Program-made: the position numbers and the translations under genes
DNA from: Dysgonomonas sp. PF1-14
Lineage (GTDB): Bacteria; Bacteroidota; Bacteroidia; Bacteroidales; Dysgonomonadaceae
Assembly (NCBI RefSeq): GCF_029892965.1
Contig: NZ_JARXWN010000009.1
Span: 1-64,000, forward strand
DNA: 64,000 nt
Direction of reading: 5' to 3'
Shown here: positions 50,919-64,000 of the stretch, in pieces
How the letters are laid out: the number at the start of each line of letters is the position of its first letter
Position numbering within the stretch: position 1 is the stretch's first letter
Notes under the pieces: model-generated
What the model was told of the DNA's origin: nothing
Seen by the model: only the letters and a program-made list of their open reading frames with translations
Databases searched by the model: none

Positions 50919-52949
50919 ATGAAAAAATACAATATAAAGACAACAGATAAAGAAACGCTGAAAAAGTGGTATCACCTGATGACGCTCGGGCGGGCTATCG
51001 ACGAAAAAGCCCCTGCTTACCTCCTGCAATCGCTGGGATGGTCATACCATGCACCTTATGCCGGACACGATGGCATACAGCTCGCTATGGGACAGGCATT
51101 CACCAAAGGTGAGGACTTTATGTTCCCTTATTACAGGGATATGCTCACAGCCCTTTCGGCAGGAATTACTGCAGAAGAACTGATACTGAACGGCATATCG
51201 AAAGCTACCGATCCGGCAAGTGGAGGACGACACATGTCTAACCACTTTGCCAAGCCCGAATGGCATATAGAGAATGTATCTTCTGCCACAGGTAACCACG
51301 ACCTGCACGCAGTAGGTGTTGCCCGTGCAATCAAATATTACAAGCATACAGGTGTAGCCATTACTTCACATGGCGAATCGGCCATGTCCGAAGGTTATGT
51401 GTATGAGGCTATCAACGGCGCATCACGCGAACAGTTGCCTGTAATATTCGTCATTCAGGATAACGGATACGGAATATCCGTTCCGAAAAAAGACCAGACA
51501 GCCAACCGTAAAGCCGTAGATAACTACTCAGGGTTGAAGAATCTAAAGATTGTACACTGTAACGGTAAAGACGTATTCGACTCGATGAATACAATGGCCG
51601 AAGCCCGCGAATATGCAATAAAGAATCAGGCTCCTGTACTTGTACACGCTAACTGTGTGCGTATCGGCTCACACTCCAACTCGGACAAGCATACGCTCTA
51701 TCGTGACGAAAACGAATTGAAGTATGTAAAAGATGCTGACCCGTTGATGAAGTTCCGCCGTATGCTACTGCGTTACAATCGCTTTACAGAAGAGGAGCTG
51801 AAAGAGATAGAAGCCGCAGCCAAGAAAGACCTCAGTGCAGCAAACAAAAAAGCGCTGGCCGCACCCGATCCCGATCCGGCATCTATCTTCAAATTTGTTA
51901 CTCCCGAACCATATCAGCCTAAAAAATATGTAGACGGCACACACAACGAAGACGGAGAGAAGAAAAATCTGGTAACAGCTATAAACGAAACACTGAAAGC
52001 CGAATTCCGTCACAATCCCGATACTTTCCTTTGGGGACAGGACGTTGCCAATAAAGATAAAGGAGGTGTATTCAACGTATCGAAAGGCATGCAGCAGGAA
52101 TTTGGGGAGGGACGTGTATTCAATGCACCTATTGCCGAAGACTTCATTGTAGGTACAGCCAATGGTATGAGCCGCTTCGATCCTAAAATACGTATTGTGA
52201 TCGAAGGAGCCGAGTTTGCCGACTATTTCTGGCCTGCGATGGAACAATATATAGAATGTACACACGACTACTGGCGCAGCAATGGTAAATTTGCCCCTAA
52301 CATTACGCTCCGTCTGGCTTCGGGCGGATATATAGGCGGAGGTATGTACCACTCGCAAAACCTCGAAGGTGTATTAGCCGGACTGCCGGGTGCGCGTATC
52401 GTCTATCCATCGTTTGCCGATGATGCAGCAGGACTGCTTCGTACGAGTATGCGTTCCGAAGGTTTCACCGTATTTATGGAACCTAAAGCTCTTTACAACT
52501 CTGTAGATGCTGCAACGGCTATACCCGACGATTTCGAAGTTCCGTTCGGAAAAGCGCGTATCCGTCGTGCAGGAAAAGACCTGAGCATTATAACATACGG
52601 GAATACAGTGCTTTTTAGTCTGGGCGTAGCCGAAAAACTGGCCAAAGATGGATGGGATGTAGAGGTTATAGACCTTCGCTCTCTCGTTCCGCTTGACAAA
52701 GAAACGATTGCCGAATCGGTAAAGAAAACCAGCAAGGCACTGATAGTGCACGAAGACAAGGTATTCTCAGGTTTCGGAGCCGAGATAGCAGCAATGATAG
52801 GAACCGAGTTGTTCCAGCATCTCGATGCACCGGTTCAGCGTGTAGGTTCTACTTTTACTCCGGTAGGTTTCAACCCAATATTGGAAAAAGCCGTTTTGCC
52901 GGGTGAAGACCGCATCTATGAGGCAGCTAAGAAGTTATTGGAATTCTAA
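50919..52949 (+). CDS. 2-oxoacid dehydrogenase E1, fused alpha and beta subunits
   Basis: 676 residues. The alpha half (about 1-330) has GRAIDEKAPAYLLQSLGW and the ThDP site ITSHGESAMSEGYVYEA with VIQDNGYGIS. The beta half (about 345-676) has TFLWGQDVANKDKGGVFNV, APIAEDFIVGTANGMS and VHEDKVFSGFGAEIA. The fused form is common in Bacteroidota and is usually annotated as 2-oxoisovalerate dehydrogenase. It decarboxylates the 2-oxoacid and loads the E2 lipoyl arm. Substrate choice between branched-chain oxoacids and pyruvate cannot be settled here. Confidence 0.93.
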   Translation: MKKYNIKTTDKETLKKWYHLMTLGRAIDEKAPAYLLQSLGWSYHAPYAGHDGIQLAMGQAFTKGEDFMFPYYRDMLTALSAGITAEELILNGISKATDPASGGRHMSNHFAKPEWHIENVSSATGNHDLHAVGVARAIKYYKHTGVAITSHGESAMSEGYVYEAINGASREQLPVIFVIQDNGYGISVPKKDQTANRKAVDNYSGLKNLKIVHCNGKDVFDSMNTMAEAREYAIKNQAPVLVHANCVRIGSHSNSDKHTLYRDENELKYVKDADPLMKFRRMLLRYNRFTEEELKEIEAAAKKDLSAANKKALAAPDPDPASIFKFVTPEPYQPKKYVDGTHNEDGEKKNLVTAINETLKAEFRHNPDTFLWGQDVANKDKGGVFNVSKGMQQEFGEGRVFNAPIAEDFIVGTANGMSRFDPKIRIVIEGAEFADYFWPAMEQYIECTHDYWRSNGKFAPNITLRLASGGYIGGGMYHSQNLEGVLAGLPGARIVYPSFADDAAGLLRTSMRSEGFTVFMEPKALYNSVDAATAIPDDFEVPFGKARIRRAGKDLSIITYGNTVLFSLGVAEKLAKDGWDVEVIDLRSLVPLDKETIAESVKKTSKALIVHEDKVFSGFGAEIAAMIGTELFQHLDAPVQRVGSTFTPVGFNPILEKAVLPGEDRIYEAAKKLLEF

Positions 52950-52951
52950 AT

Positions 52952-53026
52952 AGTGTACTAGTTTGCAGTTTACTAGTATACAAGCCTTATATTTTTGATA
53001 ATATAAATTGTATAAACTAGTACACT
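52952..53026. repeat. Inverted repeat, AGTGTACTAGTTT
   Basis: AGTGTACTAGTTT (52952-52964) and AAACTAGTACACT (53014-53026) are perfect complements 49 bases apart. It fills the gap between E1 and the flavodoxin and is related to the repeat at 29535. It may act as terminator or be a small degenerate element. Confidence 0.55.
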
Positions 53027-53051
53027 TTAATACTTACTAAACTTATATACA

Positions 53052-53558
53052 ATGAAAAAAATCGGATTATTTTACGGAACAAGTACAACTAAAACAGCAA
53101 CCATAGCAAAAAAAGTGAAGGCGGCGTTCGGAGATATCCAAATAGATATTATCCCTGTAGAAGATGCTTGGAACAAAGACTTCGAGGGCTATGACAATAT
53201 CATCGTAGGCGTTTCCACATGGTTCGACGGCGAACTGCCAACCTACTGGGACGAAATAAGCCCCGAACTGGAATCACTAAAAATGAAGGGAAAGAAGATT
53301 GCCATCTTCGGACTGGGCGATCAGGTGAAATATCCCGAAAACTTTGTAGACGGAATAGGTTTGCTTGCTCAGACTTTCGAGTCGGCAGGAGCAAAAATAG
53401 TTGGTCTCACTTCAACAGAGGGATACCAGTTTGAAGGCTCTCTGGCACTAAGAGACAACAAATTCTTAGGGCTGGCCATAGACTTTGAGAATCAGCATGA
53501 CCAAACAGACAAGCGCGTCCAAAACTGGGTGAAACAGTTGGAGAAAGAGTTTAATTAA
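53052..53558 (+). CDS. Flavodoxin, long-chain type
   Basis: 168 residues. The N-terminal GLFYGTSTTKTATIAKKV is the FMN phosphate loop; VSTWFDGELPTYWDE and FGLGDQVKYPENFVDG are the isoalloxazine loops, and the inserted 20-residue segment marks the long-chain class. It is a low-potential electron carrier. The phosphate loop lacks the usual final TGNT, having STTKT. A terminator follows at 53581. Confidence 0.93.
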   Translation: MKKIGLFYGTSTTKTATIAKKVKAAFGDIQIDIIPVEDAWNKDFEGYDNIIVGVSTWFDGELPTYWDEISPELESLKMKGKKIAIFGLGDQVKYPENFVDGIGLLAQTFESAGAKIVGLTSTEGYQFEGSLALRDNKFLGLAIDFENQHDQTDKRVQNWVKQLEKEFN

Positions 53559-53580
53559 AATCCTTCCTCAATTCTTCTAT

Positions 53581-53612
53581 ACGGGCAATCTTTGAGGTTG
53601 TCCGTTTTTTTT
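53581..53612 (+). terminator. Intrinsic terminator after flavodoxin
   Basis: ACGGGCAA pairs with TTGTCCGT (one G-U) around a 9-base loop, followed by seven to eight T. Confidence 0.85.
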
Positions 53613-53644
53613 ATCGCCTTTGAGTGAATACAAAAGGGTTACTT

Positions 53645-53898
53645 TTTTAACTAAAACCTGACAATGCTTACAAGTTTGACTCGCCTTCGCTTCGGCAATT
53701 CTTAATTGGCTAACGCCGAACGTTGTTTCTTCGCCCTACGGGTAGTTACGAGTATTTTTCTTTGCGCCTTCGCGTCTTTGCGTGAGACAATTTTAACTAA
53801 AACCTGACAAAGCTTGCATATTTTTCTTTATTTCTTACTTATATCAAAGATCGCTATCATTCGTACACTGGTACATTGATACTCTATAGATAAACTTT
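53645..53898. repeat. Interspersed repeat R2, copy 2
   Basis: Same blocks in the same order as 29612-29905: TTTTAACTAAAACCTGACAA, TTTGACTCGCCTTCGCTTCG, CGCCCTACGGGTAGTTAC, CTTCGCGTCTTTGCGTGAGA, a second TTTTAACTAAAACC and TATAGATAAACTT. It fills the gap between two convergent genes. Confidence 0.75.
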
Positions 53899-53954
53899 TT
53901 CGGTTCTCTTCATCTTCCCTATTTATCTCATATTATTTTGATATTCAAAAGAAT

Positions 53955-54155
53955 CTAATCCGTTTCTTCCAAAAAGAATATATCTTCCAAAGGCTTACCA
54001 AAAACGCGTGCAATTTTCAGTGCCAATACAGTAGAAGGCACATATTTATTTGATTCCATTGCATTGATTGTCTGCCTGCTTACCGAGACTTTTTTTGCTA
54101 ACTCTTCCTGCGTAAGATTATTTATAGCCCTTTCTACTTTTATATTATTTTTCAT
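53955..54155 (-). CDS. Small XRE-family HTH regulator
   Basis: 66 residues, almost only a helix-turn-helix: NLTQEELAKKVSVSRQTINAMESNKYVPS. This matches the small YozG-like repressors that pair with a membrane protein gene. It starts inside the end of the upstream gene (11-base overlap), so the two are coupled. A palindrome in the shared promoter is its likely operator. Confidence 0.88.
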   Translation of the reverse strand: MKNNIKVERAINNLTQEELAKKVSVSRQTINAMESNKYVPSTVLALKIARVFGKPLEDIFFLEETD

Positions 54156-54612
54156 CCGGAAGTGTTCTTGAATACCTAAAAAATAAATAATTGAACCTTA
54201 CAATAAATATCAGGAGAATAGTAACCGTATTAAACATCAGAACATTTATAAAATTAAGACCGTATATGAATAAAACAGCAAGCAACAAGATGACATAATT
54301 TATAAAGACAGCCCACATCAAAGAGGATAACCGTAGGCTCGATACAAATTCATCCTCTATCTTTTCTTTAGAGAAAGCCGCTAATAAACCGCCAACAATC
54401 AATAAAAACAGAGTAATTGTCAAAGTCATATCTACACTGCTAAAAGAAGCCGGATTCCCAGACTTCATCCATGTAAGGAACTTTACATCTACAATCCAGA
54501 AACCATCAAAATAATTATTGAATATTATTCCAAACAGGAATGCAGCCAGCAGAATGATAAATCCTATCATTTTGCATCTGTGGGGAAATAAAAATTTTGT
54601 AGCCATACTCAT
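54145..54612 (-). CDS. Four-TM membrane protein paired with an HTH repressor
   Basis: 155 residues with four hydrophobic helices (about 13-34, 53-75, 90-112 and 117-140) and a Lys-rich tail. No family recognised beyond the general layout of membrane proteins linked to small XRE regulators (DUF2178-like). ATG 54606 is an alternative start. Role unknown; the pair may respond to membrane-active stress (inference). Confidence 0.7.
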   Translation of the reverse strand: MSMATKFLFPHRCKMIGFIILLAAFLFGIIFNNYFDGFWIVDVKFLTWMKSGNPASFSSVDMTLTITLFLLIVGGLLAAFSKEKIEDEFVSSLRLSSLMWAVFINYVILLLAVLFIYGLNFINVLMFNTVTILLIFIVRFNYLFFRYSRTLPDEK

Positions 54613-54634
54613 GCATATTTAAAAGTTAACACCA

Positions 54635-54666
54635 CAAATGTAAAGTAAATTTTACATAAAGACAAA
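54635..54666 (-). promoter_or_regulatory. Consensus promoter with an operator in its spacer
   Basis: On the minus strand TTTG (54666-54663), 20 bases, then TACATTTG (54642-54635): an exact match to the Bacteroidota consensus. The spacer and -7 box carry the palindrome ATGTAAA, 6 bases, TTTACAT (54638-54657), well placed for a repressor to block the promoter of the membrane-protein/HTH pair. Confidence 0.7.
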
Positions 54667-54792
54667 TATTTTTTACATATTTTGCAATAATATTTTTTAG
54701 TGGCCCATGCAACTAAACTGCCCGAAATTGCATCTATCTTCACAACAGAACATTTACAAGCACAATAACGTTATATAAATAAAAAAGAACTT

Positions 54793-55554
54793 ATGAAATT
54801 TCTAAAATTACTTACACTGGCAGTTATTGCCACATTCGCACTACAAAGCTGCAACTCGGTTAAAACCTTAACTAAAGAACAATTAGCCGATAAATGGATA
54901 TTGAAATCGATAAACGGACAAGATGCAAAAGAAGCATTCCCGAATAAAACGCCTCATGTCACTTTCGACTTTGCCGAAGGAAGAATGTCGGGTAATGGAG
55001 GTTGCAACGGATTTGGTGGAACTTTCTCTCTTGATAAAGATGAATTTACCGGATCGAAAATGATTTCGACCATGATGTTCTGCGGAAACGAAGAATCTAC
55101 TTTATTCAAATTGCTAGACGGGAAATCCAAGCTGGCAATAAAAGGCGATGAACTTACATTCTCACAAGATGGTAAAACAACATTGGTATTCTCGCGCGCT
55201 CAACCGTTAGGCGTAGCCGATCTGGCCGGAGTATGGAAACTGCAATCGTTGAACGGAAAAAGCGAGGCCGAAACAGATACGAAGAAAATGCCAACGATGG
55301 AATTAAACTTTGCTGAGAAAAGAGTTTCGGGAACTACCGGTTGCAACAGGTATAACGGCACATTTACATTAGAAAACGATGTACTGACTGTAAACCCTCT
55401 TGCAACTACACGTATGGCCTGTATTAACAACATGGAAATGGAAGCCGAGTTTGTAAAAACATTTACAGGCAAAATAAACTTAGTAAAAGAAAGTGACAAC
55501 CAACTTATAATGAAGAAAGATGGTAAAACCATCATTATATTCGGAAGAGAATAA
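54793..55554 (+). CDS. Lipoprotein with two META domains (HslJ-like)
   Basis: 253 residues. Lipobox LQSC (Cys20). Two tandem META domains at about 28-137 and 143-253; each has a GNGGCNGFGGTF or GTTGCNRYNGTF core and a ...CG/ACIN...E segment. HslJ-type proteins sit in the outer membrane or periplasm and are linked to stress and heat-shock resistance; here the domain is duplicated. Expressed alone. The terminator at 55574 is shared with the convergent regulator. Confidence 0.88.
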   Translation: MKFLKLLTLAVIATFALQSCNSVKTLTKEQLADKWILKSINGQDAKEAFPNKTPHVTFDFAEGRMSGNGGCNGFGGTFSLDKDEFTGSKMISTMMFCGNEESTLFKLLDGKSKLAIKGDELTFSQDGKTTLVFSRAQPLGVADLAGVWKLQSLNGKSEAETDTKKMPTMELNFAEKRVSGTTGCNRYNGTFTLENDVLTVNPLATTRMACINNMEMEAEFVKTFTGKINLVKESDNQLIMKKDGKTIIIFGRE

Positions 55555-55573
55555 AATATATCTATAATAAAGC

Positions 55574-55607
55574 AACAGCCCGCATATTCTGTAATATCCG
55601 GGCTGTT
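55574..55607. terminator. Bidirectional terminator
   Basis: AACAGCCCG and CGGGCTGTT form a perfect 9-bp stem with a 16-base loop, with T/A-rich flanks on both sides. It lies between two convergent genes. Confidence 0.8.
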
Positions 55608-55625
55608 TGCATTTTGTTATCCCCT

Positions 55626-56300
55626 TTATACCATCTGGCAATACGATGCCCTTACTACCCAATACTGAGCCTTAGAATCCATATCGAACGGATATTCGAC
55701 CCACTCGTTAAGCGATAAGGTTACCTTTCCCTCCTTCTCTATATATACGCCTAGCTTCATGCCTTCGGGGTCTACCATCACTCCCAGTTTATCTATAATC
55801 CTGTGTACATTCTCCTTCACTACATTTTCCAGTACAAGGATATCCCCGTTGTGATAATTAAATCCGGACGGAAGTATATCCTGATTATCGATCTCAAATG
55901 CCAGCAATCTGAATTTTGAACTATTGGGTACTATGATATACGGCAAATGATAGAAGAATTCTTCATCCGTATATTGATTTATATAATCGTTAATATATAA
56001 CGCAGGAATATAAGAAACTTTTTGCAACTGCTGGGCTATTTTAAGCTTCTCTGTTTCCAGTACCAATTCTGCATTATAGTGCAAAAGTTCATTCACCGAC
56101 AGGTCTTTTTCAATGATATCAGCCAATGGAATGCCAAAATATTTAGCAATCCGTATTATTACTTCTATCTTAGGCTCAGCACGAAACTCTTCGTATGAGG
56201 ATATATTACCTCTGGTAAGCTGGAACAGATCAGCAAAAGCCTGCTGACTAAGTCCCCTTACATTTCGTATCTTTTTAATATTTTTTCCTATTTGCGACAT
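55626..56300 (-). CDS. XRE regulator with S24/LexA-like C-terminal domain
   Basis: 224 residues. N-terminal HTH (NVRGLSQQAFADLFQLTRGN, residues 13-32) followed by a dimerisation linker and a C-terminal S24-like fold (FRLLAFEIDNQDILPSGF, NGDILVLENV, YWVVRASYCQMV). The usual catalytic Ser in G-D-S-M and the later Lys are not evident, so it probably does not self-cleave. Two 16-bp repeats just upstream are its likely operators. Confidence 0.85.
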   Translation of the reverse strand: MSQIGKNIKKIRNVRGLSQQAFADLFQLTRGNISSYEEFRAEPKIEVIIRIAKYFGIPLADIIEKDLSVNELLHYNAELVLETEKLKIAQQLQKVSYIPALYINDYINQYTDEEFFYHLPYIIVPNSSKFRLLAFEIDNQDILPSGFNYHNGDILVLENVVKENVHRIIDKLGVMVDPEGMKLGVYIEKEGKVTLSLNEWVEYPFDMDSKAQYWVVRASYCQMV

Positions 56301-56305
56301 TTTTT

Positions 56306-56361
56306 GCTAAAAATATTTGCACATTAAAAATTTATTAGTAATTTAGCTAAAAATATTTGCA
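56306..56361. promoter_or_regulatory. Twin 16-bp operators 40 bp apart
   Basis: GCTAAAAATATTTGCA occurs at 56306-56321 and 56346-56361, exactly 40 bp start to start. Each copy is itself a near-palindrome (GC..AAATATTT.GC). The first ends 5 bases from the regulator's ATG. They probably bind the XRE/S24-like regulator and could also affect the divergent PspA-flotillin cluster (56486). Confidence 0.6.
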
Positions 56362-56485
56362 AACATAAGAAAATAAATGAAGAATAGAAAATGAAAAGCG
56401 AAAAATTAATTTTTCAATAAAATTATTCTCAAATTTGAAAACACCAATTTATAACTCATAATTCATAACTTATAACTTTATAAAT

Positions 56486-56875
56486 ATGTATTTCAAGAAA
56501 ATAGAATCGTACATTTCCAAGCTCGGCTATTCTGTATCTTACCAGAATGAGAAGGAAGGCATATTTCTCATCGAGAGTGAAGCTGACGGAATCAAAAACC
56601 TGATTATCGGGGTTGCGCCTCCCATCCTGATAGTGGAACAATTTATCTTCAAACTGAAAAGCGATGATAAAGATATCTATAAAGCCTTACTCAAGAAGAA
56701 CAGGGACATTATACACGGGGCATTCGTTCTCGATGAAGAAGGCAAAAAAGTCATATTCAGATACACATTGCAGATAGAGAATCTGGACATGAACGAATTT
56801 GAAGGGGCACTAAACTCACTGGGATTATTACTAAGCGAATACTACGAACAGATTATTGAATTTTCTAAAAGATAA
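56486..56875 (+). CDS. YbjN-like protein
   Basis: 129 residues, alpha/beta, without signal or TM segments. MYFKKIESYISKLGYSV, LIIGVAPPILIVEQFIF and the C-terminal ALNSLGLLLSEYYEQI match the YbjN/T3SS-chaperone-like fold. Such proteins bind partners rather than catalyse reactions. It is the first gene of the cluster and lies 4 bases before pspA, so it probably helps PspA assembly or regulation (inference). Confidence 0.75.
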   Translation: MYFKKIESYISKLGYSVSYQNEKEGIFLIESEADGIKNLIIGVAPPILIVEQFIFKLKSDDKDIYKALLKKNRDIIHGAFVLDEEGKKVIFRYTLQIENLDMNEFEGALNSLGLLLSEYYEQIIEFSKR

Positions 56876-56879
56876 AATT

Positions 56880-57581
56880 ATGAATATTTTTAAAAGACTT
56901 TTGAGAATCGGACAGGCAGAAATACATTCTGCAGTCGACAAAATGGAAGATCCGATCCGCATGACGGAACAAGGGATAAGAGAAATGCGTGAAGACCTCG
57001 ATAAGGCACTGGAAGCACTGGCACAAATAAGAGCTATGGCTATCCGTACCAAAAACGATAAAGCCAAAAAGCAAACAGGCGCTCAGGACTACGAAAACAA
57101 AGCCGTATTGCTGCTCACCAAAGCCCAAAAAGGCGAACTGGAACTCGAAACAGCAGAGAAACTTGCCAAAGAAGCACTGGCACTGAAAGAAAGCCTTCTG
57201 GCAGAAGCTGCTACACTGGCCGAACAACAGGTGGTACACGAAAATTCGGCTGATGAGATTCAGAAGAATGTGGAAATTCTCAAATTCAATATCACCAAAT
57301 GGGAGAATGAACTGAAAACGTTGAAGTCGAGAATAAAAGTGAGCCGCGCCACGAAGGAAGTGAACAAACAGATGGCACAGATAGACAGCAACAGCACTAT
57401 AAGCATGCTCGAGCGCATGAAAGAGAAAGTGGAAGAAGAAGAAGCGCTGGCTCAGGCTTACGGTGATATAGCCAAGAAAAGAACGTCTGTAGATGAAGAA
57501 ATAGACAAGGCTATAGGCGAAGACGCCGGAAAAGTGAACGAAGAACTCGACGAAATAAAACGTAAACTGGGGATGCTGTAA
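56880..57581 (+). CDS. pspA: PspA/IM30-family membrane-stress protein
   Basis: 233 residues from ATG 56880. N-terminal helix MNIFKRLLRIGQAEIHSAVD, then MEDPIRMTEQGIREM, then a continuous coiled coil to the end (GKVNEELDEIKRKLGML). These are the ESCRT-III-like proteins that bind damaged membranes and stabilise them. Clustered with YbjN, an OB-fold membrane protein and flotillin, it is probably part of an envelope-integrity machine. ATG 56856 overlaps the YbjN gene and was rejected. Confidence 0.92.
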   Translation: MNIFKRLLRIGQAEIHSAVDKMEDPIRMTEQGIREMREDLDKALEALAQIRAMAIRTKNDKAKKQTGAQDYENKAVLLLTKAQKGELELETAEKLAKEALALKESLLAEAATLAEQQVVHENSADEIQKNVEILKFNITKWENELKTLKSRIKVSRATKEVNKQMAQIDSNSTISMLERMKEKVEEEEALAQAYGDIAKKRTSVDEEIDKAIGEDAGKVNEELDEIKRKLGML

Positions 57582-57609
57582 ACCAATGGCATAATGAGCT
57601 AATGTGCCG

Positions 57610-57714
57610 ATATGCCAATAAAAATAATGTATCAATTTTAAAATTATTTGAATGTTAGATTTTTCAATTAATTTATTGGCATATTGGCATATTTAATAAA
57701 AACATTTACTTTTG
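57610..57714 (+). promoter_or_regulatory. Internal promoter and inverted repeat in the stress cluster
   Basis: ATTGG with TTG at 57684-57686, 20 bases, then TACTTTTG (57707-57714) fits the consensus. The inverted repeat ATATGCCAATAAA (57610-57622) and TTTATTGGCATAT (57672-57684) ends at the -33 box. So the genes from 57728 onward can be transcribed without pspA, perhaps with control through the repeat. The predicted start leaves a very short leader (under 10 bases). Confidence 0.55.
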
Positions 57715-57727
57715 ACCTTTATATACT

Positions 57728-58468
57728 ATGACCGAATTTTTACATAACTTGATGCACCCTCTACCCAACGCTGTAATGACAGTCATAATGGGTATTATAG
57801 TCGTCTTCTGGCTGTTCACATTTCTCAGCGGAGCCGGATTCGATGCTCTCGATGTTGATTTTGATCTGGACGTAGACGCCGATGTTGATGTAGACGTGCC
57901 CGAAGTCAATATATATCCCGGCACCGAGATCGATACCGACGTAGATGTAGACGCCGATGCTGACACAGATGCAGATGTTGCAACAGATAAAGAACCCGGA
58001 TTCTTTATGAAGTTCCTCAACTTCATGAATGTAGGAAAAGTTCCGTTCATGCTCATCATATCCACGCTGAAGCTGTTCATGTGGATCGGTTCACTCATAA
58101 CAACATCATTCATTAATGTAACAGGTTGGGGACTATGGTCATTGCTTATATTATTGCCGATAGGATTTATCGGGCTGTTTTGCACAAAACTGGCAACAAA
58201 CCCTATGGTAAAGATGTTTAAAGCAATCGGGTATAAAGGCGAAGAAGCAATTGATTTTCTAGGGCGTTCGGGCAAAATGCTATCCAACATAAAAGATCAG
58301 AAAATAGGCACTGCCGAGTTTATCGTAGACCAGAACCCGATAAAACTGAATGTGATAAGTATCGACGGCGAAGAGCTCAGATATGGCGACTATGTACTGA
58401 TAGCTGACGAATCGAACGATAAGAAGATATACTATGTAAGTAAAGAAATAAGCCTAAGAAACTTATAG
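57728..58468 (+). CDS. OB-fold membrane protein with Asp-rich loop (YqiJ/NfeD-like)
   Basis: 246 residues. TM helix at 15-34; an Asp-rich low-complexity stretch at 39-88 (pattern DVDxDxDVDAD); TM helices at about 103-128 and 133-153; a C-terminal OB-like domain (175-246) with ISIDGEELRYGDYVLIADE. YqiJ/NfeD proteins are standard flotillin partners, and the flotillin gene is next. The Asp-rich loop resembles calcium-binding DxDxD sequences and is not expected in a typical YqiJ. Confidence 0.75.
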   Translation: MTEFLHNLMHPLPNAVMTVIMGIIVVFWLFTFLSGAGFDALDVDFDLDVDADVDVDVPEVNIYPGTEIDTDVDVDADADTDADVATDKEPGFFMKFLNFMNVGKVPFMLIISTLKLFMWIGSLITTSFINVTGWGLWSLLILLPIGFIGLFCTKLATNPMVKMFKAIGYKGEEAIDFLGRSGKMLSNIKDQKIGTAEFIVDQNPIKLNVISIDGEELRYGDYVLIADESNDKKIYYVSKEISLRNL

Positions 58469-58514
58469 GAACTACATACATATTTGTGAGAGACACAATA
58501 TTAAACTTTTAGTA

Positions 58515-58586
58515 ATGTTATTCTTATTGATTACAGCCATTATCGGCTTGTTAATGTACCTTTTTGGGCTAAAATTATCAATTTAA
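58515..58586 (+). CDS. Possible 23-residue membrane peptide
   Basis: MLFLLITAIIGLLMYLFGLK then LSI: one hydrophobic helix with a single Lys near the end. It sits in the 171-base gap between the OB-fold gene and flotillin. Small TM peptides are found in such operons, but there is no homology support and a weak ribosome-binding region. Confidence 0.35.
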   Translation: MLFLLITAIIGLLMYLFGLKLSI

Positions 58587-58639
58587 ACAAATAAAAAATA
58601 ATTAACTCATAAACAAAACTATAAAACTAAAAAAACACT

Positions 58640-60829
58640 ATGGAACAAATCATTATTATTGTTGTTGCTGCTGTAGTCTGTATTCTACTGATTATTTTCG
58701 GACTTCTGGCATCCTTTTACAAAAAAATTCCACAAGGGAAAGCCATTGTCCGCACCGGAGTAGGCGGCTCGCATGTTGCTTTCAACAAGGGAATGTATGT
58801 AATTCCTGTATTCCACAAAATGGAGATTATGGATATCTCCCTCAAAAAAGTACAGATAGAAAGAATGCAGCACGACGGACTGATCTGTAAGGACAACATC
58901 CGCGCCGACATCAAAGTAGCATTCTTCGTGCGGGTAAACAAGTCGGTAAACGATGTTATCAACGTAGCACAATCTATCGGTTGCGAAAGAGCCAGCGATA
59001 TATCTACGCTGAAAGACATTTTCGAAGCTAAATTCTCGGAAGCGCTGAAAACCGTAGGTAAGAAATTCGACTTCATAGAACTGTACGAAGCACGCCGCGA
59101 ATTTCGTGACGAAATCATCAACATCATCGGAACTGACCTTAATGGCTATGTACTCGACGACTGTGCAATCGACTATCTGGAACAGACAGAGTTACAATTT
59201 CTGAGCCCTGAAAACATCCTCGACTCGGAAGGTATCAAGAAAATCACCGACCTGACAGCTGCTCAGAACATCAAAGCCAATCTGATACGCAGAGAAGAAG
59301 AAAAGGTAATCAAAAAACAAAACGTAGAAGCACGCGAAGCCATTCTCGAACTGGAAAGACAACTTGCCGAGAAAGAAGAAAAGCAAAAACGTGAAATAGA
59401 TAACGTAAAAGCACGCGAAGGCGCCGAAATACAGAAAGTACGTGAAGAAGAGCGTCTGAAATCGGAAACTGTACGCATCAGTACCGAAGAGAGCCTTGCC
59501 GTACAGGAAGAAAATAAACTTCGCCAGATCATCATCGCTGAGAAGAACAAGCAACGTACCGAAGCAGTTGAATTTGAGCGCGTAGAAAAAGATCGTGCAC
59601 TGGAACAAACAGAACGCGAGCGCATCGTTACCCTTGCTCAGATAGACAAAGAACGCGTGATAGAGGTGGAAAGAAAGAACATTCAGGACGTGATCAAAGA
59701 ACGCGTACAACTCGAAAAAGGCGTTGTAGAAGAACAACAGAACATGAAGGACATCGAAGCCTTCCGTACTGTAGACCGCCAGAAACAAGTAGGTATCACT
59801 ACCGCAGCACAGGAAGCCGAACAAAGATTGATAGAAACAGTAAAAGCTGCCGAAGCAAAAAAACTGGCCGCCGAACAAAAAGCAAAAGAATTGCTTATCG
59901 ATGCAGAAGCACAGAAAGAAGCATCTAATAAACAAGCCGAAGCGCGTAAAACGCTTGCCGATGCTAAAGCTCGCGAAGATGCTACTTACGGACTTGCTGA
60001 AGCTGAAGTGATCAAAGCAAAAGCTGAAGCCCTTGAACAACAAGGTACTGTAGAAGCTACTATCATCGAGAAAAAAGCGAAAGCCGAAGCTGTTGGCATC
60101 GAAGCAAAAGCCGAAGCCAAGAAGAAAGAAGGACTGGTAGAAGCCGAAGTAACTAAAGAAAAAGCCCTTGCATCTGCAACCGGAGAAGCGAGCATCATAG
60201 AGAAAACTTCACTGGCAGAAGCTACCGGTATAGAAGCTAAGGCTGAAGCTAAACGCAAAGAGGGATTGATGGAAGCCGAAGTGATTAAAGAAAAAGCACT
60301 GGCGGAAGCAGCCGGAATCGACGAAAAAGCAGCAGCCATGAAAAAACTGGATGGCGCAGGAAAAGAACACGAAGAGTTCAAACTTGCCCTACAGAAAGAA
60401 AAAGACGTGGAACTGGCTCAGATCAGAATACAAAAAGACATTGCAGACGCACAGGCACTTGTATTGTCAGAAGCGCTTAAAAACGCCGATATCGACATCG
60501 TGGGTGGTGAAACAATGTTCTTCGACAACATTGTTAAACAGATATCCAATGCCAAAGGCTTTGACCGCTTAGTGAACGAAAGCGAAAACGCTACGCAGAT
60601 CAAGAGAGCCCTTATCGGCAACGGAACATCGGAAGGCGACCTCATCGAACGCATCAGATACTTTGCCAAACAAATGGGTATATCTACCGAAGATGTGAAG
60701 AACCTGAGCATTGCCGGACTTATCCTGAAAATGCAGGCACAGGCTACAACTGAGGATGACAAAGGATTCCTTAGCAACCTGATGAGCATGGCCAAATCGA
60801 TGGGTATTTCCAACAAGAAATTAAGCTGA
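58640..60829 (+). CDS. Large flotillin (YqiK-like) with tandem 44-residue repeats
   Basis: 729 residues, longer than usual flotillins. TM helix at 4-26, band-7/SPFH domain about 30-200, then a very long charged helix (220-600) and a C-terminal helical domain (about 610-729). Residues 472-515 and 516-559 are a clean tandem duplication of a 44-residue unit (EAKAEAK and KEGLVEAEV segments), four 11-residue turns each. It scaffolds membrane domains with the OB-fold partner and PspA. A hairpin at 60842 separates it from the next gene. Confidence 0.92.
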   Translation: MEQIIIIVVAAVVCILLIIFGLLASFYKKIPQGKAIVRTGVGGSHVAFNKGMYVIPVFHKMEIMDISLKKVQIERMQHDGLICKDNIRADIKVAFFVRVNKSVNDVINVAQSIGCERASDISTLKDIFEAKFSEALKTVGKKFDFIELYEARREFRDEIINIIGTDLNGYVLDDCAIDYLEQTELQFLSPENILDSEGIKKITDLTAAQNIKANLIRREEEKVIKKQNVEAREAILELERQLAEKEEKQKREIDNVKAREGAEIQKVREEERLKSETVRISTEESLAVQEENKLRQIIIAEKNKQRTEAVEFERVEKDRALEQTERERIVTLAQIDKERVIEVERKNIQDVIKERVQLEKGVVEEQQNMKDIEAFRTVDRQKQVGITTAAQEAEQRLIETVKAAEAKKLAAEQKAKELLIDAEAQKEASNKQAEARKTLADAKAREDATYGLAEAEVIKAKAEALEQQGTVEATIIEKKAKAEAVGIEAKAEAKKKEGLVEAEVTKEKALASATGEASIIEKTSLAEATGIEAKAEAKRKEGLMEAEVIKEKALAEAAGIDEKAAAMKKLDGAGKEHEEFKLALQKEKDVELAQIRIQKDIADAQALVLSEALKNADIDIVGGETMFFDNIVKQISNAKGFDRLVNESENATQIKRALIGNGTSEGDLIERIRYFAKQMGISTEDVKNLSIAGLILKMQAQATTEDDKGFLSNLMSMAKSMGISNKKLS

Positions 60830-60841
60830 TAAATTATATTT

Positions 60842-60875
60842 AGTCCTGCATCGTGCAGATGTATGATGCAGGGCT
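60842..60875 (+). other. Intercistronic hairpin
   Basis: AGTCCTGCATC and GATGCAGGGCT form an 11-bp stem (one G-U) with a 12-base loop, 12 bases after the flotillin stop and 7 before the next ATG (60883). No U-tract follows. It may limit translation or protect the flotillin message rather than terminate. Confidence 0.5.
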
Positions 60876-60882
60876 TATAAAT

Positions 60883-61497
60883 ATGGAAAATTTAATATTG
60901 CTTTTCTTTTGGATATTGTTTCCGATAGTAGCTATAGCTGTTTTTTCAAGTGGTACGCAAAAGGCAAAAAGAGTTTTGTTGTACATAACCGTAATTGGCT
61001 GTGTCACGTATATTCTATGCAATGTTTTCGATATTAAATCGAAATACGAGATGATCAATATCGGCTTCGGGATGTTTTTCTATCTGCTTATACTTATCCT
61101 GATAGCCTATATACTTGAATTAATAGAAAACAAAACGGCAAAAACAGTCTACACAGTATTGGTTATTGTTCCTGCCGCCATAATCATACTAATCGGTAGT
61201 TTCCTTATACTGCTATGGAGTACAGATTCTAGTGATATCGAACTAAAAAAATCGTTTATCACAGGTGATTATACAACATATAGAAAGGTAGAAGCATGGG
61301 AATACACGACGGAAGAAGTTTCTATTAATATCTACAAAGATATGCCTGTTCTCAGTTTTCTGCACCGTAAGGTATATGAAATGGATGATGTAAACATAGA
61401 ACTCGACACAGTGATACTCACATCAGAAAAGAATATTTTATCATTAACGCTCTCAAGAGACAGTATAAAAACAATACGTCTCGTTGACTTAAAGTAA
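60883..61497 (+). CDS. Four-TM membrane protein with soluble C-terminal domain
   Basis: 204 residues from ATG 60883; an in-frame ATG at 60853 lies in the loop of the hairpin and was rejected. Four hydrophobic helices (about 3-20, 28-44, 58-80 and 88-115) then a beta-rich domain with WEYTTEEVSINIYKD and VNIELDTVILTS. No family recognised. Its place between flotillin and the giant protein suggests a membrane anchor or sensor for the complex (inference). Confidence 0.6.
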   Translation: MENLILLFFWILFPIVAIAVFSSGTQKAKRVLLYITVIGCVTYILCNVFDIKSKYEMINIGFGMFFYLLILILIAYILELIENKTAKTVYTVLVIVPAAIIILIGSFLILLWSTDSSDIELKKSFITGDYTTYRKVEAWEYTTEEVSINIYKDMPVLSFLHRKVYEMDDVNIELDTVILTSEKNILSLTLSRDSIKTIRLVDLK

Positions 61498-61521
61498 GTA
61501 GAATTTATATAGTTTAATTAT

Positions 61522-64000
61522 ATGCAAGATTTGGAACAAAACAAAGCTGCTGAATCACTGGAAGCAGGCACTTATGAAATCATAAGAAAACGCCTGCAAA
61601 CCCAGAAAGACGCGTTATCTACCCGTCTCAATTCACTGAATGAGGCGCGCAAAGACGTGTTCACTTCATCAGACCTCACCCTGATAGCAAACCAACGCAT
61701 AAATACGGAAAACAACTGTGTTTCGAGGGGCATTATGGCTCTGGGAAACCTCTATATATTCGGGTACAATGTCCATTTCGGATTGCGCACCGATATACAG
61801 CTGAGTGATGTTTTCAGCATCTATACACTCGAAAACAATCAGTTTGTTCCGCAGACTTTGGAGTTGATAGACGATCCTGTATTCATTACCGACTATAAAA
61901 ATCTGTATAAATACTACAGGGATTCGATCTTTTCCAAATTCAGGCGTACAGAGAACTATCTTTACATGGTTTTCCAGACCAGCAAAAGCATAGATGGCCT
62001 CAAAGCCTTCAAGTGGCTGATAAAAGGAAACAAGCTGATCTATCAGGACGACCGTAGCATACACGAAGTAGTAAAAGCGCCACAGTTTGAGTTCAAGTGG
62101 ATAAAGACTACCCTCGAAGACCGTCGTCTGGGTGTCTATCCGCACGTATCTATCCTCGATAAAGTCTTCATCGAAGCTGTAGGCGGTGACATTACTTTCA
62201 AAATAGAAGATAATACACAGACGGGAAAAGGCATATATTCCGAAAAGGTAGAGAATAAAGACCAGCAACTCGACGATGCCGAATACTACTATGCCGATCT
62301 GGGAAATCTCATTCTGGTAAGGATAAAACCGTATCAGGAAGATTTCAGGACATTTGTATTCAACACACGCACCAAAGAGGTACTCAATATAAAGATGCTC
62401 AACGATGCAGGAATACTCCTGCCCGACAATCATGGTATCATATTTCCCAACGGGTATTATCTCCAAAATGGCGACCACAAGATATTTGAAAGCGAACTGA
62501 ATAATCTGGAATTTTTCCGTAAAGTGGCATCACCTAACGGCGAAGACTTCCTTTACATATTCTACCAGAACGAGCGGAATATTTACGTCATCATGTCGTA
62601 CAACATCATCCGTCAACAGGTAGAGACACCGATTATCTGCAACGGATTCACCCTGTCTCACGATGGTACGCTGATATTCTTCCGTAGCGAACAAGAGGCC
62701 TCCAGGCATCATCAGGTACAGATATGGCAAACCCCCTACTCTGCCCGCCTGATAGAAAATTATGAGAAGAAGGACAACATTCTTTACAAAATCGGCAACA
62801 AGGACATTGTAAAGGCAATGGCTGAATGTCAGGAAGTCATTCACCTGATCAACAAGGAAGATACCTACGAAGGTCTTTATGAAGACATTGTAAAGAAATC
62901 GAATGATATTGTCGATGCTTACTTCTGGGTATCGGACGAAGCTACGTATAAACTGGCTGAACCACTGGTAGAAATAAAAGAGATTGCCAACACAGCCATC
63001 GACGAGTTCGAGAAGGTCAAAGCACAGAAGAAATACGCAGCAGATATACTGGAAGCAACAGTTAACAAAGTAGATGCACTGCTATTCTCTATCAAAAATG
63101 CAAAATTTGATTCGCTCGATAAGCTGGTTAAACTATTGGCCGAAACCCGCAGAATGCAGGGTGAAGTCATAGAACTTAATAATCAGAAATACATAGACAC
63201 CGGCAAAATAGAAGAGCTGAAAGAAACGCTGATAGCCACAGCCGGCAAACTGTCGGACAAAACTGTCGAATTCCTGTTGCGCGATGAAGCTTTGATTCCG
63301 TACGAAACAAAAGTAGCAGATCAGAAAAAAGAAGTCGAAAGCGTCCTGAAAGTAATAGATGCCAACAAGATAGAAGAGAACTGCAAGTTGATATCTTCCG
63401 AACTGGAATTGCTTATAGACATACTCAACAGCCTGAAAATAGACGATACTACCCAAACCACTAAGATCATCGAAAAAATATCACTGATATTTGCATCGCT
63501 GAACGAGGTCAGGGCGCAACTGAAAAAGAAAGTAGATTCGCTGAAAAACAAGGAAGCCGCCGGAGAATTCCGTGCTCAGCTTACCTTGCTCGAACAGAGC
63601 ATCGTCAACTATCTGGAACTGGCTACATCACCCGAAAAGAGTGATGAATATTTCACAAAGGTTAGTGTACAGATAGAAGAACTGGAAAGTAAATTTGCCG
63701 ACTTCGACGATTTCATTGTTATTATATCCGACAAGCGGAACGAGGTAGTAAAAGTATTCGATGCGCGGAAAGCACAGTTGATAGAACAAATCAACAGACG
63801 CACTTCTTCTCTCGAACAAATCGGTCTGCGTGTACTGAAAAATGTAGAAAATAAGGCACAGTCTTTCAAATCGAAAGAAGAAATACAAGCTTTCTACTCT
63901 ACCGACCTCATGGTCGACAAAGTACATAAGCTGGTTGAAGACCTGAAAAATCTGGGAGACGTATCGAAAGCCGAAAATCTGGAGAACAGCCTCAAGACTT
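61522..64000 (+). CDS. Giant coiled-coil protein of the 'DNA repair ATPase' type, N-terminal part
   Basis: Open frame from ATG 61522 running past the window edge; 826 codons seen. The first 60 residues are helical (ESLEAGTYEIIRKRLQTQ), then a beta-rich propeller-like region (about 65-440; NLYIFGYNVHFGLRT, WIKTTLEDRRLGVYPHVSI, LPDNHGIIFPNGYYL), then long coiled coil from about 445. This layout matches the N-terminal half of very large bacterial proteins annotated as DNA repair ATPase, in which an AAA ATPase domain lies further along. That domain is outside the window, so ATPase function is not seen here. Last visible gene of the PspA-flotillin cluster. Confidence 0.6.
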   Translation, partial: MQDLEQNKAAESLEAGTYEIIRKRLQTQKDALSTRLNSLNEARKDVFTSSDLTLIANQRINTENNCVSRGIMALGNLYIFGYNVHFGLRTDIQLSDVFSIYTLENNQFVPQTLELIDDPVFITDYKNLYKYYRDSIFSKFRRTENYLYMVFQTSKSIDGLKAFKWLIKGNKLIYQDDRSIHEVVKAPQFEFKWIKTTLEDRRLGVYPHVSILDKVFIEAVGGDITFKIEDNTQTGKGIYSEKVENKDQQLDDAEYYYADLGNLILVRIKPYQEDFRTFVFNTRTKEVLNIKMLNDAGILLPDNHGIIFPNGYYLQNGDHKIFESELNNLEFFRKVASPNGEDFLYIFYQNERNIYVIMSYNIIRQQVETPIICNGFTLSHDGTLIFFRSEQEASRHHQVQIWQTPYSARLIENYEKKDNILYKIGNKDIVKAMAECQEVIHLINKEDTYEGLYEDIVKKSNDIVDAYFWVSDEATYKLAEPLVEIKEIANTAIDEFEKVKAQKKYAADILEATVNKVDALLFSIKNAKFDSLDKLVKLLAETRRMQGEVIELNNQKYIDTGKIEELKETLIATAGKLSDKTVEFLLRDEALIPYETKVADQKKEVESVLKVIDANKIEENCKLISSELELLIDILNSLKIDDTTQTTKIIEKISLIFASLNEVRAQLKKKVDSLKNKEAAGEFRAQLTLLEQSIVNYLELATSPEKSDEYFTKVSVQIEELESKFADFDDFIVIISDKRNEVVKVFDARKAQLIEQINRRTSSLEQIGLRVLKNVENKAQSFKSKEEIQAFYSTDLMVDKVHKLVEDLKNLGDVSKAENLENSLKT

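What the first reader, a model, noticed from the sequence alone, without database searches (positions are those of the whole stretch)
56486..64000. PspA-flotillin-giant coiled-coil cluster as a multi-part membrane-stress machine
Seen: YbjN-like, PspA, Asp-rich OB-fold membrane protein, tiny TM peptide, large flotillin, four-TM protein and the start of a giant propeller/coiled-coil protein, all on one strand with short gaps and two candidate promoters. Known: PspA and flotillin/NfeD partners stabilise damaged membranes. Inference: the giant protein, probably with an AAA domain downstream, is an energy-driven component acting with PspA filaments. The full set is not a textbook system.
Basis: partly seen in the sequence, partly recalled or inferred. 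Interest (0 to 1): 0.7.

Follow-up and report, generated by a model that had tools for sequence, protein, structure and literature searches.

The report
Known membrane-stress operon with unreported repressor
This is a known type of bacterial membrane-protection gene cluster, but beside it lies an apparently undescribed control switch: a repressor gene whose likely DNA binding sites sit on the cluster's promoter and, in many relatives, inside the repressor gene itself.

Summary
The cluster is real, and the giant protein does end, beyond the window, in an AAA+ ATPase (1,615 aa). The set is not new: Ravi et al. 2024 (PMC11237479, section 19) describe this operon: CesT/Tir chaperone, PspA, YqiJ-like protein, flotillin, and AAA+ fused to coiled coil and propeller. 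Five genes form the conserved set, in one order in 67 of 80 loci. The tiny peptide and four-TM protein do not belong to it. PspA is dispensable: seven genomes that keep the AAA gene have no PspA. Its likely 17-bp operator occurs in 62 of 62 divergent spacers and in 6 of 7 held-out loci, overlapping the promoter where one is recognised (46 of 62). A further copy lies inside the regulator's own gene: codon 56 varies between Gly, Ser and Cys yet is NGC in 62 of 66, but in only 3 of 7 held-out loci.

The parts
55626..56300 (-). Divergent regulator, 224 aa: Cro/CI-type HTH plus C-terminal domain of LexA/CI fold without conserved Ser or Lys
   Evidence: HTH_3 8.3e-11; in 66 of 67 loci with CesT; alignment; fold
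56132..56148 (.). O3: putative operator inside the regulator gene, codons 51-57 (TGCCAAAATATTTAGCA)
   Evidence: 3 of 7 in held-out loci
56305..56321 (.). O1: putative operator (TGCTAAAAATATTTGCA)
   Evidence: motif in 62 of 62 spacers; place in window
56345..56361 (.). O2: second putative operator (AGCTAAAAATATTTGCA)
   Evidence: two sites in 29 of 62 spacers; place in window
56316..56346 (+). Putative Bacteroidota-type promoter TTTG-N19-TAATTTAG between O1 and O2; one base off TAnnTTTG
   Evidence: read; strict pattern found in 46 of 62 spacers but not in the window; consensus recalled
56486..56875 (+). CesT/Tir-type chaperone (YbjN-like), 129 aa
   Evidence: CesT_Tir_1 3.9e-53
56880..57581 (+). 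PspA, 233 aa, ESCRT-III superfamily
   Evidence: PspA_IM30 2.1e-44; matches PspA/Vipp1 chains of the PDB
57728..58468 (+). YqiJ-like membrane protein, Asp-rich loop, 246 aa
   Evidence: YqiJ_N 27.9 bits over cut-off 23
58640..60829 (+). Flotillin of YqiK type, 729 aa
   Evidence: hhalign to E. coli YqiK 99.9%
61522..64000 (+). Start of the giant AAA+ protein (continues to contig base 66369, 1,615 aa)
   Evidence: DUF3686, DUF7902, AAA; catalytic residues invariant in 31 rows
60883..61497 (+). Four-TM protein: accessory gene in a variable slot, not core
   Evidence: relative in 1 of 80 loci; slot contents
58515..58586 (+). 23-aa hydrophobic ORF, not conserved; probably not part of the system

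Best explanation
This is a Bacteroidota member of the published CesT/Tir-PspA / YqiJ-flotillin / AAA+ membrane-stress operon, kept off by a dedicated divergent repressor. Sequence shows the parts, their order and the sites; the actions that follow are inferred. At rest, repressor dimers (HTH plus a LexA/CI-like domain) bind O1 and O2 on the operon's promoter and O3 inside the repressor's own gene, holding the operon and probably the repressor itself low. An envelope signal, not LexA-type self-cleavage, releases it. CesT holds PspA until PspA polymerises on damaged membrane; the YqiK-type flotillin with its YqiJ partner forms a membrane platform; the giant AAA+ uses ATP to remodel proteins or polymers there. 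YqiJ-flotillin-AAA is the core; repressor-CesT-PspA is a module that can be absent while the core stays.
For: Operon parts and order; published type. Regulator divergent in 66 of 67 loci with CesT; in 9 of 61 relatives, all 9 with DUF3686, 0 of 50 without (Fisher 3e-9); in 7 of 7 DUF3686 genomes of the phylum sample, divergent from PspA. Operator in 62 of 62 spacers vs 1.3 in shuffles, 11.5 per kb in spacers vs 0.066 elsewhere in the same loci, in 6 of 7 held-out loci. Promoter pattern in 46 of 62 spacers, all 46 overlapping an operator, vs 1.2 in shuffles. Intragenic site: NGC at codon 56 in 62 of 66, expected 17.9; 13 first-base but 0 third-base changes on the tree. LexA/CI fold; no invariant or 90%-conserved Ser or Lys in residues 92-224 of 35 rows. 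PspA and regulator both absent in seven genomes that keep the AAA gene.
Against: No experiment. Repression, rather than activation, is inferred from site position only. The intragenic site fails in 4 of 7 held-out loci and in 4 of 66. L116 has no consensus operator (its one loose match looks like chance). The window's promoter misses the strict pattern by one base, and 16 of 62 spacers lack it. G020 and G052 have DUF3686 without the regulator; L066 has PspA without CesT or regulator. In four of the seven phylum-sample regulators only the first 76-107 positions match the profile. The LexA relation is not seen by sequence. The AAA's client is unknown, and in the PspA-less genomes completeness was not told.
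Confidence: 0.7

Rival explanations
1. The AAA+ is a dedicated disassembly motor for PspA polymers, a bacterial analogue of Vps4 acting on ESCRT-III (the first reader's idea; Ravi et al. discuss similar roles for other AAA+ partners).
Confidence: 0.25
2. The divergent HTH protein is an activator, or controls other genes, and its conservation beside the operon is only positional.
For: Binding direction is not tested; 32 of 62 spacers also show the promoter pattern towards the regulator, so the sites could serve the regulator's own gene.
Against: Operators overlap the operon's promoter in all 46 spacers where it is recognised; the regulator is missing whenever CesT is missing in the 9 such genomes where this could be checked, except L022, whose regulator, CesT and PspA lie on another contig; two exact operator copies in the own genome, both here.
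Confidence: 0.15
3. The intragenic site is a by-product of protein and codon constraints, not an operator.
For: Part of the motif follows from conserved residues I-A-N/K-Y-F; it is absent in 4 of 7 held-out loci and 4 of 66.
Against: Codon 56 varies between Gly, Ser and Cys but keeps the third base with 0 changes on the tree (gene median 21); third bases of codons 51, 54 and 55 change only 3, 1 and 1 times. It is the highest synonymous-conservation peak in the gene and of all six genes scanned (z 11.7). The spacer consensus recurs there in 55 of 61 loci.
Confidence: 0.12

Closest known systems
CesT/Tir-PspA operon with band-7/flotillin, YqiJ/YuaF protein and AAA+ (Ravi et al. 2024, PMC11237479)
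   Same: Same five protein types; abbreviated forms without PspA are also described there.
   Different: No XRE, S24 or LexA mention in the main text and no regulator named for this group in section 19. The paper suggests that abbreviated operons use a PspA from elsewhere; seven genomes here have none. Supplements and figures were not seen.
YqiJ-YqiK of E. coli and SPFH2-NfeD2 pairs (Hinderhofer et al. 2009, PMC2636767, passages)
   Same: Adjacent NfeD-like and flotillin genes; flotillin homologous.
   Different: No PspA, CesT or AAA+ gene annotated beside yqiJK in E. coli K-12.
YdjGHI-PspA of B. subtilis (Scholz et al. 2021, PMC8581546, abstract)
   Same: SPFH protein and PspA work together at the membrane.
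   Different: Other partner proteins (YdjG, YdjH); from the abstract no AAA+ or CesT partner is named.
LexA / lambda CI repressors
   Same: HTH plus C-terminal domain of the same fold; palindromic operators at its own divergent promoter.
   Different: No conserved Ser or Lys in the C-terminal domain; no detectable sequence relation; an operator inside the own coding sequence in most near relatives.
PspF-PspA (E. coli) and ClgR-PspA (Mycobacterium)
   Same: A DNA-binding regulator encoded beside pspA; ClgR is also a Cro-type HTH protein (passages).
   Different: PspF is an NtrC-type AAA+ activator; ClgR lacks a LexA-like domain as far as recalled.

Membership tests
CesT/Tir-PspA / band-7 / AAA+ operon (Ravi et al. 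2024) | CesT/Tir-PspA dyad | tested here: met
   CesT_Tir_1 3.9e-53, PspA_IM30 2.1e-44, genes 4 bases apart
CesT/Tir-PspA / band-7 / AAA+ operon (Ravi et al. [quoted passage not shown]
   hhalign to YqiK 99.9% over 381 columns; but no SPFH Pfam match at E<=1 and no PDB match
CesT/Tir-PspA / band-7 / AAA+ operon (Ravi et al. 2024) | YqiJ/YuaF-type TM protein | tested here: met
   YqiJ_N 27.9 bits, cut-off 23
CesT/Tir-PspA / band-7 / AAA+ operon (Ravi et al. 2024) | AAA+ domain at the C-terminal side of the giant protein | tested here: met
CesT/Tir-PspA / band-7 / AAA+ operon (Ravi et al. 2024) | N-terminal beta-propeller and coiled coil on that protein | tested here: inconclusive
   DUF3686 and DUF7902 match; no PDB relative by sequence; not folded
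LexA/CI-type self-cleaving repressor (S24) | Cro/CI-type HTH at the N-terminus | tested here: met
   HTH_3 8.3e-11; in all 35 members
LexA/CI-type self-cleaving repressor (S24) | C-terminal domain of LexA/CI fold | tested here: met
LexA/CI-type self-cleaving repressor (S24) | Ser-Lys catalytic pair | tested here: not met
   no Ser or Lys among invariant or 90%-conserved positions of residues 92-224 in 35 rows
ESCRT-III / Vps4 system | ESCRT-III superfamily protein (PspA/Vipp1) | tested here: met
   PDB PspA/Vipp1 matches to 1.7e-16
ESCRT-III / Vps4 system | Vps4-clade ATPase with MIT domain | tested here: inconclusive
   NorQ 15.0, Cdc48 14.3, Vps4 13.2; no MIT match at E<=1

The most novel reading that the evidence does not exclude
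Across Bacteroidota, the PspA arm of this operon is a detachable module run by its own LexA/CI-fold repressor that does not self-cleave. It represses by bridging promoter operators and an operator written into its own HTH codons, and senses envelope state through its C-terminal domain, perhaps by binding CesT or PspA. The flotillin-YqiJ-AAA+ core is a separate ATP-driven membrane machine that does not need PspA.
Probability: 0.3. Interest if true: 0.6.

Novelty: new member of a known kind. Interest (0 to 1): 0.38.

Why it matters
The operon type is published, so the finding as given is not new. What is added is a handle for experiments: the likely switch and its exact binding sites, so that one can ask what turns this PSP system on in Bacteroidota. 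The PspA-less genomes separate the AAA+/flotillin function from PspA, against a simple 'bacterial Vps4' picture and against the published guess that PspA is supplied from elsewhere. An operator conserved inside the codons of the protein that probably reads it would also be a neat case of overlapping codes.

Tried and rejected
Defence-system reading: PADLOC gave only weak coiled-coil or P-loop matches (best 0.0021). RNA element: no Rfam family over threshold in 52000-64000. Four-TM protein as core part: rejected (1 of 80 loci). Tiny TM peptide as core part: rejected. AAA subclass, Vps4-like or MoxR-like: not resolved, top folds tie. Looping by helical phase: O3-O1 centre distances cluster near 174, 193 and 204, with five at 177-180 and two at 216-217; vector length 0.68, but related species are not independent, so inconclusive. 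Regulon: with one mismatch allowed the own genome holds two further sites against three for the reversed control pattern, so no regulon is claimed. One search, a first held-out script, found nothing because its pattern was too strict; redone with the HMM. I first took L022 (Dysgonomonas sp. 521) for a genome whose dyad had moved; one search shows regulator, CesT, PspA and YqiJ at a contig end and a transposase-like ORF (by eye) before its flotillin, so an insertion is likelier. Paper searches: among the listings only Ravi et al. was seen to describe this operon type; DUF3686 is in no held paper. The library is open-licence PMC only. The PDB search with the flotillin, DUF3686 and CesT sequences gave nothing.

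Full report

It is a known operon type. Ravi et al. 2024 (outline, passages, and section 19 in full; [quoted passage not shown] The parts are met here, save the propeller, which I could not test. Popp et al. 2022 (PMC9239133, passages) already note band-7 genes beside pspA in Bacteroidota and a general tendency of pspA to lie near HTH genes.

How conserved it is. A scan of genome contigs with the AAA end gave 313 relatives; the best 80 were returned and all 80 examined, so the sample is biased to near relatives. By title all look like Bacteroidota (taxonomy recalled). CesT was found in 67, PspA in 69, YqiJ in 75, flotillin in 78, AAA in 80. The order CesT>PspA>YqiJ>flotillin>AAA holds in 67: 61 with one ORF per gene and 6 with a gene in several ORFs or an extra short hit. 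Of the 13 loci without CesT, several are cut by contig or fetch limits. The four-TM protein has one relative. The flotillin-AAA gap is a variable slot that holds unrelated genes in a minority of loci. The family is patchy: DUF3686 in 11 of 61 relatives and 8 of 296 phylum genomes, own genome included in both.

Operators and promoter. Of the 66 loci with a regulator hit, 61 gave a regulator of at least 200 aa; with the window this made 62 divergent spacers. The five left out (L023, L028, L065, L086, L100) also show sites there. The pattern [TA]GC-N11-GC[AT] is in 62 of 62; shuffles give 1.3 on average, and the other spacings from 6 to 21 give 0 to 9. The consensus is WGCWAAAWWTWTTTGCA; one site in 33 spacers, two in 29. 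In 46 of 62 spacers a Bacteroidota-type promoter (TTG-N18..21-TAnnTTT[AG]; consensus recalled) is found, all 46 overlapping an operator, against 1.2 in shuffles; 32 of 62 show the pattern towards the regulator (no separate control). The window's own promoter misses the strict pattern by one base. Held-out check: of 7 phylum-sample loci not used to find the motif, 6 have the consensus, four with the window's exact 17-mer; the seventh, L116, has only a loose match that looks like chance. In the own genome the two exact copies of the tighter consensus are both at this promoter.

An operator inside the regulator gene. Of 78 consensus hits outside the spacers, 55, in 55 of 61 loci, are one site at codons 51-57 of the regulator. 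Codon 56 encodes Gly (27), Ser (22), Cys (13) or Asn (4) and is NGC in 62 of 66 sequences (window included); synonymous choice predicts 17.9. On a tree of 63 sequences its first base changes 13 times and its third base never, while the gene's median for third bases is 21. This points to selection on DNA rather than on protein. It is not universal: NGC in 3 of 7 held-out loci. Whether O3 loops to O1 is open.

PspA is not obligatory. Ten genomes were checked: seven from loci with the AAA gene but no adjacent CesT-PspA (L035, L037, L045, L051, L087, L093, L099), and L022, L023 and L066 for comparison. None of the seven has a PspA or the regulator; the other three have PspA. In five of the seven (L035, L051, L087, L093, L099) YqiJ-flotillin-AAA is present in single ORFs; in L037 the flotillin is partial and YqiJ was not found, and in L045 neither was found. 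By title L035, L051, L093 and L099 are isolates and the other three MAGs; completeness was not told. So the AAA, with flotillin, must have PspA-independent work, and the suggestion that such operons use a PspA from elsewhere does not hold in these seven. L066 has PspA but neither CesT nor regulator.

Mechanism, shown and inferred. Shown by sequence: parts, order, co-occurrence, operator-like sites, absence of a conserved Ser-Lys pair. Inferred: repression, autoregulation, the signal, CesT as PspA holder, flotillin as platform, AAA as remodeller. An SPFH-PspA link has experimental support in B. subtilis (YdjI; PMC8581546, abstract).

Verdict. The regulator with its promoter and intragenic sites is the added, testable part. 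Searches found no description of it; supplements were not seen.

Noticed in passing
57598-57700: Long inverted repeat between PspA and YqiJ folding into a 22-pair stem (z -3.5); its arms have five partial matches elsewhere in the genome, so it looks like a dispersed palindromic repeat.
   Followed up: partly
L041:3110-3301 and some 20 other loci (Sphingobacterium, Empedobacter and others): A 64-88 aa ORF with a conserved FEYKT..GWEL..YTFKR pattern sits between PspA and YqiJ; it resembles DUF4177 (recalled, not searched).
   Followed up: no
L028:4945-6258, L065:4867-6297, L100:4869-6299: A serine-hydrolase-like gene (beta-lactamase-like by eye, not searched) occupies the flotillin-AAA slot in a Tannerella and two Sphingobacterium loci.
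   Followed up: no
56880-56910 and relatives: Codons 3-9 of pspA show strong synonymous conservation (z up to 10.5), perhaps a translation-start or RNA feature.
   Followed up: no
L086:2405-11164: In Chitinophaga sp. E66 the CesT, flotillin and AAA genes and the regulator lie in several ORFs each: a decayed copy or sequencing errors.
   Followed up: no
L022:2561-3730 and L129: In Dysgonomonas sp. 521 a transposase-like ORF (by eye) stands before the flotillin, while regulator, CesT, PspA and YqiJ lie at the end of another contig: probable insertion inside the operon.
   Followed up: partly
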